From Candidatus Parcubacteria bacterium (GTDB taxonomy: Bacteria; Patescibacteriota; Minisyncoccia; UBA6257; 2-01-FULL-56-20), in assembly GCA_027324805.1 (NCBI GenBank), contig DAHVRZ010000005.1:1-50077 (forward strand): a stretch of 50,077 bases of DNA, written 5' to 3'. The notes below the pieces were generated by a model. It was not told where the DNA came from, made no database searches, and worked only from the letters and a program-made list of their open reading frames with translations. Below are positions 13,740 to 50,077 of the stretch, piece after piece. The translations under genes and the position numbers were made by a program. Positions within the stretch are counted from its first letter, which is position 1. Each line of letters opens with the position of its first letter.

Positions 13740-15098
13740 TTAATTCGGGAAATTGAATCGGATCAGCCGTTCGCCTTGGTCTATGAGATACAGGGCATTT
13801 TCCTGCATATCGTATGTAGGCGCGGTGTCCGTTGCCATCCCCGAGATGTTCGTGAAGTTGCGCACCGAAAGATCGGCGAGATCGAGGAAGTTCACATGCG
13901 TGGGATATGTCACAAAAAGGTGGGTTTCGTCGCGGTACCATGTGAGCGACTTTATCGATCGGATATCGGGAAGATTAAAACGGTAATATCCGCCCTGGTT
14001 TGCGGGGAGCGTGAGCGAAAACACTTCAATACTGTTGCTTTCGAGCGTGGCGATGGTCGAGCCGTCCGAGGTGGGATAGAACGACCTTACGTCATCCGCC
14101 ATTTTGGTCAGTGTTTCGGAGGGGATATCGTAGCGGTAAAATTCGCCGTCCGTACCGAGCACTCCGAGAAGCGTGCTTCGGATCCATTGGAGTGAAGCGA
14201 TGCGGCCGGGAAGGGTGAGCGACGAATCGATCGTGTCTCCCGAGAACGGATCATAAACGACGATCTGCGAGGTGCCCGAAGCGTTGCGATAATCGGCCCA
14301 TGCGAGCCATGACGACGACATCGCGAGCGGACGTTCGAGCGTCCGGCCGGGCCCGGCTGCGGCAAAGGAATTGATCGTGCCGCCCGGTGCCCCCGTGGCG
14401 AGGTCGATCGCATAGAAACGCGACGGTGTTTCCACGAATATATTTGCGCTATCGTTGGGATTCACCGTGATGGCGGTCACCGAGCTTTGCGGTATGGATT
14501 CTTTCCGCAAGAGTGCCGTGATACTCGTGCTTGTGCCGTTCACGAGATTGTATGCGGAATATATCCCCGATGCGGATCTCGTGACAATGGTCGTAAAATC
14601 GTTGCCGTAGCTCGCGATCATTCCGTGCGTTATCGTGCTTGTTCCCATTGCGATCACCCCCGCTGCATTTTCGGTGGCGACGTTTCCTCCCGCTTCGAAG
14701 AAATCGGTGATATTCGCCGCGGGAGATGCGCTTGATGCGTTCGTCGGGACGAGCACCGCGTACTTCATCTCGGTGACGAGCGTCGGCGCAACCATCGCGT
14801 TCTCGGTCCAACTGTCATATCCCGGCGCTGCGAGGGAAAGGATATAATTTTTGGGAAAAAGATTTGAAATGAGCGTACCACGACTCAGAAACCCATTTGT
14901 ATTCTGTACCGATTTCCCACTCAGGGTAATTTGGGCATTTGCGGGAAACGATTCCAGAAAAATAGCCCCGACTTTTTCAGTCTTGAATGTGGCGAGATCG
15001 ATCCGCCATCCTTGTGCATAGAGCGTTATGGCGGTTCCCAGAACCAAAAAAAGGGCGAAAAGCCCATAAAAAAGCATCCTGCGTGCTCGAAGTGTCAT
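13740..15098 (-). CDS. Membrane-anchored PEGA-domain / beta-propeller-like protein
   Basis: N-terminal TM; FLESFPANAQITLSGKSVQNTNGFLSRGTLISNLFPKNYILSLAAPGYDSW matches PEGA. Confidence 0.75.
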   Translation of the reverse strand: MTLRARRMLFYGLFALFLVLGTAITLYAQGWRIDLATFKTEKVGAIFLESFPANAQITLSGKSVQNTNGFLSRGTLISNLFPKNYILSLAAPGYDSWTENAMVAPTLVTEMKYAVLVPTNASSASPAANITDFFEAGGNVATENAAGVIAMGTSTITHGMIASYGNDFTTIVTRSASGIYSAYNLVNGTSTSITALLRKESIPQSSVTAITVNPNDSANIFVETPSRFYAIDLATGAPGGTINSFAAAGPGRTLERPLAMSSSWLAWADYRNASGTSQIVVYDPFSGDTIDSSLTLPGRIASLQWIRSTLLGVLGTDGEFYRYDIPSETLTKMADDVRSFYPTSDGSTIATLESNSIEVFSLTLPANQGGYYRFNLPDIRSIKSLTWYRDETHLFVTYPTHVNFLDLADLSVRNFTNISGMATDTAPTYDMQENALYLIDQGERLIRFNFPN

Positions 15099-15163
15099 GC
15101 AAGGTCATTGTAGGACGGCGGGGAATTGTAGTAAAGCGTCGCAGGGGATTGTATACTTAAAGG

Positions 15164-15318
15164 AGGTCCAGCCTTAGATCTCGGATCAAACATTACTAAC
15201 AGGGAGGGCTACAGCACTGCAGTCCGTGGACCGCAGTTGGATGGCCCACCCACCTGGCTTTACGCCAGAGATCTTCGGTTGGATCGATGAAAAGCACCCC
15301 TTTCGGGGTGCTTTTCAT
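15164..15318 (+). ncRNA. Structured ncRNA, 6S RNA (ssrS)-like architecture, with own promoter and terminator
   Basis: TATACT 15152-15157. Closing helix 15165-15182/15268-15285 (18 positions, 2 mismatches). Inner helix GGGAGGGC/GCCCACCC. Apical hairpin ACTGC..GCAGT. 3'-side hairpin CTGGC-TTTAC-GCCAG. Terminator 15287-15318. Family assignment is inferred. Confidence 0.6.
15287..15318 (+). terminator. Terminator ATGAAAAGCACCCC-TTTC-GGGGTGCTTTTCAT
   Basis: Perfect 14-bp stem with 4-nt loop. Confidence 0.9.
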
Positions 15319-15342
15319 TTCTATTCCATCCAATGGAATGTC

Positions 15343-15372
15343 TTGACCTGCGGAAGCATTTCGATATATAAT
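15343..15372 (+). promoter_or_regulatory. rpsP promoter TTGACC-18-TATAAT, 7 nt from ATG
   Basis: TTGACC 15343-15348; TATAAT 15367-15372; ATG 15380. Confidence 0.8.
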
Positions 15373-15379
15373 GTCTTTC

Positions 15380-15721
15380 ATGTTGGCGATCAAATTACAG
15401 CGCATAGGAAAGAAGCATCAGCCGAGCTACCGGGTGGTCGTTGCGGAAAGCCGCTCGAAAATGGCGGCCCCTCCGGTGGAGGACCTCGGTTCTTACAATC
15501 CGTCCACGAAGACGGCGATCCTCAAGAAGGATCGTTTGGAATATTGGGTGAAGACGGGGGCAAAGCCTACCGTTACCGCGCACAACCTGCTTGTTAAGGA
15601 GGGTGTCATTTCGTCGGCCAAGAAGGCGGTGAAGATGCCGAAACCCGTAGCGAAGGAATCCGAAAAGAAGGAAGAGGCCGCGCCTGCGGCTGCCGCCGAA
15701 GCTCCCGCAGCCGAGGCATAG
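15380..15721 (+). CDS. rpsP: 30S ribosomal protein S16
   Basis: MLAIKLQRIGKKHQPSYRVVVAESRS...LGSYNP... Confidence 0.97.
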   Translation: MLAIKLQRIGKKHQPSYRVVVAESRSKMAAPPVEDLGSYNPSTKTAILKKDRLEYWVKTGAKPTVTAHNLLVKEGVISSAKKAVKMPKPVAKESEKKEEAAPAAAAEAPAAEA

Positions 15722-33982: not shown

Positions 33983-34413
33983 GCAGGGCAGAACGGACGA
34001 TCGCTCTTCGGGTGCAAACCAGGGGAGAGGAAAATCCGGACACCCTCCATGGATCGCTTTTGCTTCGGCGGAGCGGTGTATGGACAAAAAGGTACCCGGC
34101 GAAACGCCGGGCGTCCGTAAGGATAGAGGTGCGAGCAGTGACGTCCCGAGGCAAAAGCCGAGGGAGGGCCCGATCCCGACGTAGAAGGCCTAATTCCGCC
34201 ATAGGGACAACAAAGCGGAAGTGAAACGGCAAAATCCTTACCGGGTGCAAGGTCGTGCCTCTCGCCGTGATCCGAAAGGACCGCGTGCAAGGGGAGTGCC
34301 GCATGAGCCTGCGAGCAATCAAAGGCCAAGATGAATGATCGTCCCCGCATTTTGCGAACTGCTTATGCAGAGCGAAGGTGTGGCGACAGAATCCGGTTTA
34401 CAGTCTGCCCTGC
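33983..34413 (+). ncRNA. rnpB: RNase P RNA
   Basis: P1 GCAGGGCAG (33983-33991)/CTGCCCTGC (34405-34413); GAGAGGAAAATCCGGACAC; GGCCAAGATGAATGATCGTCCCC; GACAGAATCCGGTTTACAGTCTGCCC. Confidence 0.93.
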
Positions 34414-34420
34414 AATCCAG

Positions 34421-49520: not shown

Positions 49521-50077
49521 TTTTCAGAGGATTTGATCCTGGTCCAGGATGAACGCTGGCGGTGTGGATAAGGCATGCAAGTCGAGCGCTTCATATTTTG
49601 AAACTGTTTGCGATTACATCAAGAGCGGCGGATGTTTATGAGGAGCGGCGAACGAGTTAGTAACACCCTGGTACGTACCTCGAAGACGGGCACAGCTCGC
49701 CGAAAGGCGGGGTAATTCCCGATATTCCCGAAAGGGCAAAGTCGCAAGACGCTTCGAGATCGGCCTAGGTCCGATCAGCTAGTTGGTAGGGTAACGGCCT
49801 ACCAAGGCTATGACCGGTAGGGGAGGTGAGAGCCTGGCCCCCAACGACGAGACTGAGACACGGCTCGTACTCCTACGGGAGGCAGCAGTCGAGAATATTC
49901 GACAATGGGCGAAAGCCTGATCGAGCGACACCGCGTGCAGGATGAAGGCCTTCGGGTTGTAAACTGCGGTAGTATGGGAGGAATGTAAATGACTGTACCA
50001 TACGGAAAGAGGTGGGTAACTACGTGCCAGCACCAGCGGTAATACGTAGACCTCAAGCGTTATCCGGATTTATTGGG
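49521..50077 (+). rRNA. rrs: 16S rRNA gene, 5' portion (3' truncated by window edge)
   Basis: GGATTTGATCCTGGTCCAGGATGAACGCTGGCGG; GGCATGCAAGTCGAGCG; ACTCCTACGGGAGGCAGCAG; GTGCCAGCACCAGCGGTAATACGTAG. 5' boundary approximate. Confidence 0.95.

What the first reader, a model, noticed from the sequence alone, without database searches (positions are those of the whole stretch)
15126..15320. Unannotated structured RNA with 6S-like fold upstream of rpsP
A -10 (TATACT 15152-15157) predicts +1 at ~15164, one base before an 18-position closing helix GGUCCAGCCUUAGAUCUC (15165-15182) / GAGAUCUUCGGUUGGAUC (15268-15285) with only two mismatches and two G-U pairs. Inside are an unpaired 5' strand (GGAUCAAACAUUACUAACA), helix GGGAGGGC/GCCCACCC, an apical hairpin ACUGCAGUC..GACCGCAGU, and a small 3'-side hairpin CUGGC-UUUAC-GCCAG, followed by a perfect 14-bp terminator. 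A closing stem, asymmetric central bubble with a 3' hairpin and an apical stem is the layout of 6S RNA. It lacks the SRP GGAA-tetraloop motif, tmRNA features and a tRNA fold.
Basis: partly seen in the sequence, partly recalled or inferred. Interest (0 to 1): 0.7.

Follow-up and report, generated by a model that had tools for sequence, protein, structure and literature searches.

The report
Compact 6S RNA in Patescibacteria
This stretch encodes a short version of 6S RNA, the bacterial RNA that blocks RNA polymerase by posing as an open promoter; it is widespread in the Patescibacteria, where the standard Rfam 6S model almost always misses it.

Summary
Window 15165-15285 (+) encodes a 121-nt structured RNA (fold z = -8.8) between a -10 box and a 14-bp terminator. 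The 6S reading is also correct, although the window sequence alone cannot show it: Rfam 6S scores only 11.3 bits against a cut-off of 46.4.

The proof is a chain. Twenty homologues from the same order covary strongly (23 of 35 pairs changed on both sides). A covariance model of them finds full-length relatives across the phylum. Scanned against all of Rfam, 24 of 40 of these match 6S (RF00013), same strand, in register; 18 have E < 0.01, one passes the cut-off. In an independent scan of 381 Patescibacteria genomes, 29 of 32 Rfam-6S places coincide with model hits. The invariant core (GGGA ... CACCCACCU) is the 6S core. Rfam passes its cut-off in 5 of 381 genomes; the second model finds 156 of 381, and 154 of 199 in the window's order.

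It is not an rpsP leader: its conserved neighbour is the divergent upstream gene (17 of 20 loci). It is shorter than the 160-200 nt quoted for 6S, with a trimmed apical arm and no outer stem. RNA polymerase binding and pRNA synthesis are inferred, not shown.

The parts
15152..15157 (+). -10 box TATACT (extended, TTG before it) of the RNA's own promoter
   Evidence: -10 hexamer with at most 1 mismatch at 5-7 nt from the stem in 20 of 20 homologues
15165..15285 (+). 6S RNA (ssrS homologue), compact form, 121 nt between the ends of the closing stem
   Evidence: Fold z -8.8; covariation; homology chain to RF00013
15165..15182 (+). 5' strand of the closing (downstream-DNA-like) stem; pairs with 15268-15285
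   Evidence: helices 1 and 2, 13 of 16 pairs with changes on both sides
15183..15201 (+). 5' strand of the central bubble (GGATCAAACATTACTAACA)
   Evidence: Unpaired in the fold; GGATCAA core nearly invariant in the order
15173..15186 (+). Predicted template for a 14-nt pRNA (AUCCGAGAUCUAAG), start opposite U15186
   Evidence: Inference by position from E. coli and B. subtilis 6S; not tested experimentally
15202..15252 (+). Apical (upstream, -35-like) arm: GGGAGGGC/GCCCACCC and hairpin ACTGCAGTC/GACCGCAGT, shorter than in Rfam 6S
   Evidence: about 30 model positions deleted against RF00013 in phylum relatives
15248..15257 (+). Conserved core ACCCACCTGG at the apical-arm / 3' bubble junction, same as the Rfam 6S consensus CACCCACCUgg
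   Evidence: 86-100% conserved at 15248-15255 in 66 sequences; Rfam consensus
15254..15268 (+). Small hairpin in the 3' strand of the central bubble (CTGGC-TTTAC-GCCAG)
   Evidence: helix 5, 97.5% paired; kept, and one pair longer, when the pRNA template is blocked in silico
15287..15318 (+). Perfect 14-bp intrinsic terminator separating the RNA from rpsP
   Evidence: terminator-like hairpin in 19 of 20 homologues
13740..15098 (-). Divergent 452-aa protein gene, the conserved genomic neighbour of the RNA (no Pfam match)
   Evidence: tblastn match next to the RNA in 17 of 20 loci
15371..15721 (+). rpsP (ribosomal protein S16), downstream neighbour only within the genus
   Evidence: Pfam PF00886; rpsP found within 1.5 kb in 5 of 20 loci

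Best explanation
The locus is the single-copy 6S RNA gene (ssrS) of this patescibacterium, transcribed from its own promoter and ended by its own terminator. The RNA folds into a rod with an asymmetric open bubble that imitates a melted promoter. It most likely occupies the RNA polymerase-sigma-A holoenzyme, with the closing stem as downstream DNA, the 3' bubble strand as the -10-like contact and the apical arm as upstream DNA, and so damps transcription from ordinary promoters. When NTPs are plentiful, polymerase copies the 5' strand from about U15186 into a short pRNA (predicted AUCCGAGAUCU...), which opens the inner closing stem and releases the enzyme. Structure, conservation, transcription unit layout and homology are shown by sequence analysis. 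Polymerase binding, pRNA synthesis and physiology are inferred from homology. In this lineage the RNA is a compact form: the outer closing stem is absent and the apical arm is short.
For: Fold and its z-score. Homologues in the order with covariation: 23 of 35 pairs changed on both sides, 0 of 500 shuffles. Model R1, built only from the order, finds 61 of 381 phylum genomes, essentially one full-length hit each. An all-Rfam scan of 40 of these gives RF00013 6S in 24, same strand in all, best 47.7 bits over the cut-off of 46.4 and E 1.4e-7, with no competing family. Independent RF00013 search: 32 of 381 genomes, 5 over cut-off (up to 60.2 bits), 29 at the same place and strand as R2 hits. The invariant positions GGGA and ACCCAC.U are the 6S consensus positions. 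R2 found in 154 of 199 genomes of the order and in none of 6 genomes from other phyla. Promoter and terminator conserved. Truncated 78-82-nt B. subtilis 6S-1 variants still go through the 6S cycle, with about 10-fold lower affinity (PMC8876501), so a short form can work.
Against: The window sequence itself does not reach Rfam's 6S cut-off (11.3 against 46.4 bits, E = 8). R2 does not recover E. coli ssrS, so the link to classical 6S runs through intermediate Patescibacteria and the Rfam model. It is 121 nt against the 160-200 nt quoted for 6S (PMC8414754). The predicted pRNA lacks the GG described as conserved in known pRNAs (PMC8414754), although the true start is unknown. No transcript or protein data.
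Confidence: 0.92

Rival explanations
1. A 6S relative that has diverged in function, for example an Ms1-like RNA that stores core RNA polymerase rather than blocking the sigma holoenzyme, or a promoter decoy that does not template pRNAs.
For: Ms1 of Actinobacteria is structurally related to 6S and binds core polymerase (PMC9130861), so the fold alone does not fix the partner; the predicted pRNA lacks the GG found in known pRNAs.
Against: Sequence homology runs to RF00013, not merely the fold, and the junction leading into the -10-like 3' bubble strand is the most conserved part. Truncated 6S-1 keeps 6S function.
Confidence: 0.06
2. A cis-regulatory leader of rpsP (ribosomal protein autoregulation or attenuation).
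For: It lies immediately upstream of rpsP in the window and four other genus members.
Against: Fifteen of 20 loci have no rpsP match within the fetched flank; the conserved neighbour is the divergent upstream gene. A perfect terminator separates it from rpsP. It has the sequence and structure of 6S.
Confidence: 0.01
3. A divergent form of another housekeeping RNA (SRP RNA, tmRNA, RNase P RNA) or an unrelated new RNA class.
For: No RF00169 SRP RNA was found in the assembly, so an SRP slot is formally empty.
Against: tmRNA (111.7 bits) and RNase P RNA (85.5 bits) lie elsewhere in the genome. None of 40 homologues matches SRP; 24 match 6S.
Confidence: 0.01

Closest known systems
6S / SsrS RNA (Rfam RF00013)
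   Same: Closing stem, asymmetric central bubble, hairpin in the 3' bubble strand, apical arm, GGGA...CACCCACCU core, own promoter; homologues over the Rfam cut-off in the same phylum at loci found by the window-derived models.
   Different: Scores below the cut-off itself; 121 nt instead of about 160-200; outer closing stem absent; about 30 positions of the apical arm missing; different neighbours from E. coli (zapA-ssrS-fau).
Bacillus subtilis 6S-1 RNA
   Same: Small 3' bubble hairpin predicted already in the free RNA and kept when pRNA opens the stem, unlike the long release hairpin of gamma-proteobacteria (PMC8876501).
   Different: Shorter; no central-bubble-collapse helix could be identified with confidence.
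Ms1 RNA of Actinobacteria
   Same: 6S-like structure that binds RNA polymerase (PMC9130861).
   Different: Known from another phylum, different genomic context; binds core polymerase; no sequence link found here.

Membership tests
6S RNA (RF00013) | Common descent with known 6S RNAs | tested here: met
   Order-only model R1 -> phylum homologues -> RF00013 matches in 24 of 40, one over cut-off in that scan; 29 of 32 independent RF00013 places coincide with R2 hits, 5 places over cut-off
6S RNA (RF00013) | Closing stem, asymmetric central bubble, apical arm in one rod | tested here: met
   Fold; covariation in all helices except the 3' bubble hairpin in the order-level set; all helices except the invariant GGG/CCC covary phylum-wide
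6S RNA (RF00013) | Conserved GGGA...CACCCACCU core around the bubble | tested here: met
   GGG 100%, ACCCAC.U 94-100% in 66 sequences; same letters conserved in the Rfam consensus
6S RNA (RF00013) | Sequence itself above Rfam's gathering score (a detection threshold, not a property of the RNA) | tested here: not met
   11.3 bits against 46.4; no match in own genome. Membership rests on the homology chain instead
6S RNA (RF00013) | Usual length of about 160-200 nt (typical rather than defining; PMC8414754) | tested here: not met
   121 nt from stem end to stem end, about 155 nt if the terminator is retained; the -10 box leaves no room for an outer stem
6S RNA (RF00013) | Independent transcription unit | tested here: met
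   -10 box 20 of 20, terminator-like hairpin 19 of 20
6S RNA (RF00013) | pRNA template in the 5' bubble strand, with the GG seen in known pRNAs | tested here: inconclusive
   Template position present, but the predicted pRNA AUCCGAGAUCU lacks GG; start site unknown
6S RNA (RF00013) | Binds sigma-70/A RNA polymerase holoenzyme and is transcribed into pRNA | not testable with these tools
   Needs biochemistry
Ms1 RNA | Binds core RNA polymerase without sigma | not testable with these tools
   Needs biochemistry
rpsP leader | Located in front of rpsP across relatives | tested here: not met
   rpsP found in 5 of 20 loci only
Bacterial small SRP RNA (RF00169) | Match to the SRP RNA model | tested here: not met
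   No match in own genome nor in homologues

The most novel reading that the evidence does not exclude
The Patescibacteria carry a phylum-wide, naturally minimal RNA polymerase-binding RNA that descends from 6S but works differently: for example it binds without the -35-like arm contact, uses a different pRNA start, or acts on core polymerase as Ms1 does, adapted to ultrasmall, host-dependent cells.
Probability: 0.12. Interest if true: 0.75.

Novelty: new variant of a known kind. Interest (0 to 1): 0.5.

Why it matters
6S RNA is described as present in nearly all bacteria, but no paper found in the searched open library reports it in the Patescibacteria (Candidate Phyla Radiation), and Rfam's model passes its cut-off in only 5 of 381 genomes here. 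A model grown from this locus finds 156 of 381, and 77% of the window's order. That gives a concrete handle on global transcription control in tiny, mostly uncultured and reduced genomes, a better family model for annotation, and a natural counterpart to the artificially truncated 6S-1 RNAs used to ask which parts of 6S are needed.

Tried and rejected
Direct Rfam scan of the window: only an in-register but insignificant 6S match; the top lax hit, rsmX (19.7 bits, E 0.21), aligns best over the terminator and is taken as chance. The first alignment mixed strands, because loci of minus-strand hits are not turned; it was discarded. R2 against E. coli ssrS: no meaningful match, as may be expected for a model of short patescibacterial forms. 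A pattern scan of genome contigs returned 23 contigs; R2 finds nothing in the Bryobacterales, Chthoniobacter, Acidobacteria, Jiangella, Solincola and Acidimicrobiia genomes hit by it, so those hits are taken as chance. Antisense R1 matches (26-32 bits) are mirror images of the rod; promoter and terminator fix the sense strand. A central-bubble-collapse helix could not be identified convincingly. Literature searches for 6S RNA with Candidate Phyla Radiation, Patescibacteria, candidate phyla, Parcubacteria or Saccharibacteria gave nothing relevant; the library is open access only.

Full report
WHAT IS THERE. The RNA 15165-15285 plus terminator folds at -79.5 kcal/mol, z = -8.8, with no shuffle as good. 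Part of that stability belongs to the terminator hairpin, so I rely mainly on the comparative evidence below.

RELATIVES. A DNA search of 100 relatives led to 20 homologous RNAs, the window's own included, in the same genus, family and order; two further hits covered the terminator only, and one was the window's own terminator palindrome. Turned to one strand and trimmed to the stem ends, they align end to end. On the given structure 91.9% of cells pair, 23 of 35 pairs show changes on both sides, and no shuffle or slid control comes near. All 20 have a -10 hexamer with at most one mismatch 5-7 nt before the stem, mostly with a TG just upstream; 19 of 20 have a terminator-like hairpin and T-run just downstream, some of them weak.

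NEIGHBOURS. rpsP follows the RNA only in the window and four genus members. The divergent 452-aa gene upstream (13740-15098, minus strand, no Pfam match) accompanies it in 17 of 20 loci. So this is an independent gene, not an rpsP leader.

IDENTITY. Rfam scanned at the gathering threshold gives nothing here. A lax scan gives 6S at 11.3 bits, E = 8, but in register: the 5' bubble strand, GGGAG and CACCCACCUGG fall on the same elements of the 6S consensus. To settle it I built a covariance model (R1) from the 20 order-level sequences alone and searched 381 genomes of the phylum: 61 had a match, essentially one per genome, full length. I then scanned short loci of 40 of these homologues against all 4227 Rfam families: 24 matched 6S at E up to 1, 18 of them below 0.01, always on the strand R1 had chosen, the best at 47.7 bits (cut-off 46.4, E 1.4e-7). 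The only other matches were neighbouring tRNAs and chance microRNA models. A second model R2 (66 sequences) found 156 of 381 phylum genomes. An independent search with Rfam's own 6S model found 32 of the 381, 5 over cut-off (up to 60.2 bits), and 29 of the 32 places coincide with R2 hits on the same strand (confirmed on loci). R2 finds 154 of 199 genomes in the window's order (129 of 163 good-quality ones) and nothing in six genomes from other phyla. Named contigs that carry the motif include Parcubacteria, Paceibacterota, Liptonbacteria and Colwellbacteria, which places the window in the Patescibacteria.

CORE. In 66 sequences the near-invariant positions are GGGA (15202-15205), A15211, A15213, GG (15228-15229), TG (15238-15239), G15244 and ACCCAC.T (15248-15255). 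GGG and CCCACCU are also the strongly conserved letters of the Rfam 6S consensus printed.

A COMPACT FORM. Known 6S RNAs are given as about 160-200 nt (PMC8414754). Here the stem-to-stem length is 121 nt. The apical arm lacks about 30 Rfam model positions in the aligned phylum relatives. In most of the other phylum members where a -10 box could be placed it sits about 16-32 nt upstream of the modelled stem, leaving room for an outer closing helix that Rfam aligns. In the window's order and some others of its class it sits 5-9 nt upstream, so the outer helix cannot be transcribed. Truncated 78-82-nt B. subtilis 6S-1 variants consisting of the bubble and two short arms still complete the 6S cycle with about tenfold lower affinity (PMC8876501), so such a form can plausibly work.

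MECHANISM (inferred). By homology the RNA should occupy the sigma-A holoenzyme as an open-promoter mimic and be released by pRNA synthesis. Analogy with E. coli and B. subtilis puts the pRNA start at about U15186, giving AUCCGAGAUCUAAG. Blocking that template in silico opens the inner stem, leaves the apical arm intact and keeps the 3' bubble hairpin, often one pair longer, as described for B. subtilis 6S-1 rather than E. coli (PMC8876501). The predicted pRNA lacks the GG noted in known pRNAs (PMC8414754), so the exact start is open. None of this is tested at the bench.

ALTERNATIVES. An Ms1-like core-polymerase role (PMC9130861) cannot be excluded by sequence. tmRNA and RNase P RNA lie elsewhere in the genome. 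SRP RNA was not found by RF00169 in the assembly, but nothing links this RNA to SRP.

LIMITS. R2 does not recover E. coli ssrS; the link to classical 6S goes through intermediate Patescibacteria and Rfam's model. E-values from the home-made models are rough. A6 was fitted to the model, so its pair counts lean towards the structure; one search is the fairer test. The literature searches cover open-access papers only.

VERDICT. Observation confirmed; interpretation supported and sharpened: the 6S RNA of a patescibacterium, a compact variant that Rfam's model misses.

Noticed in passing
window 33984-34416 (+): Bacterial class A RNase P RNA, 85.5 bits (E 6e-27) but below Rfam's gathering score of 100, so a standard scan misses it too.
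   Followed up: partly
window 49521-50077 (+): 5' part of a 16S rRNA gene, cut by the end of the contig.
   Followed up: no
whole genome G000: No Bacteria_small_SRP RNA (RF00169) match at E 0.1 in the 96.5%-complete assembly; either missing from the assembly or diverged as 6S is here.
   Followed up: no
window 13740-15098 (-): 452-aa protein without a Pfam match, divergent from the 6S gene and conserved beside it in 17 of 20 loci at 33-70% identity.
   Followed up: partly
G504:C1:131646-131768 and 131990-132107: Two tandem R2 matches in one genome of the order, possibly duplicated 6S genes as known in the Bacillus cereus group (PMC7726162 abstract).
   Followed up: no
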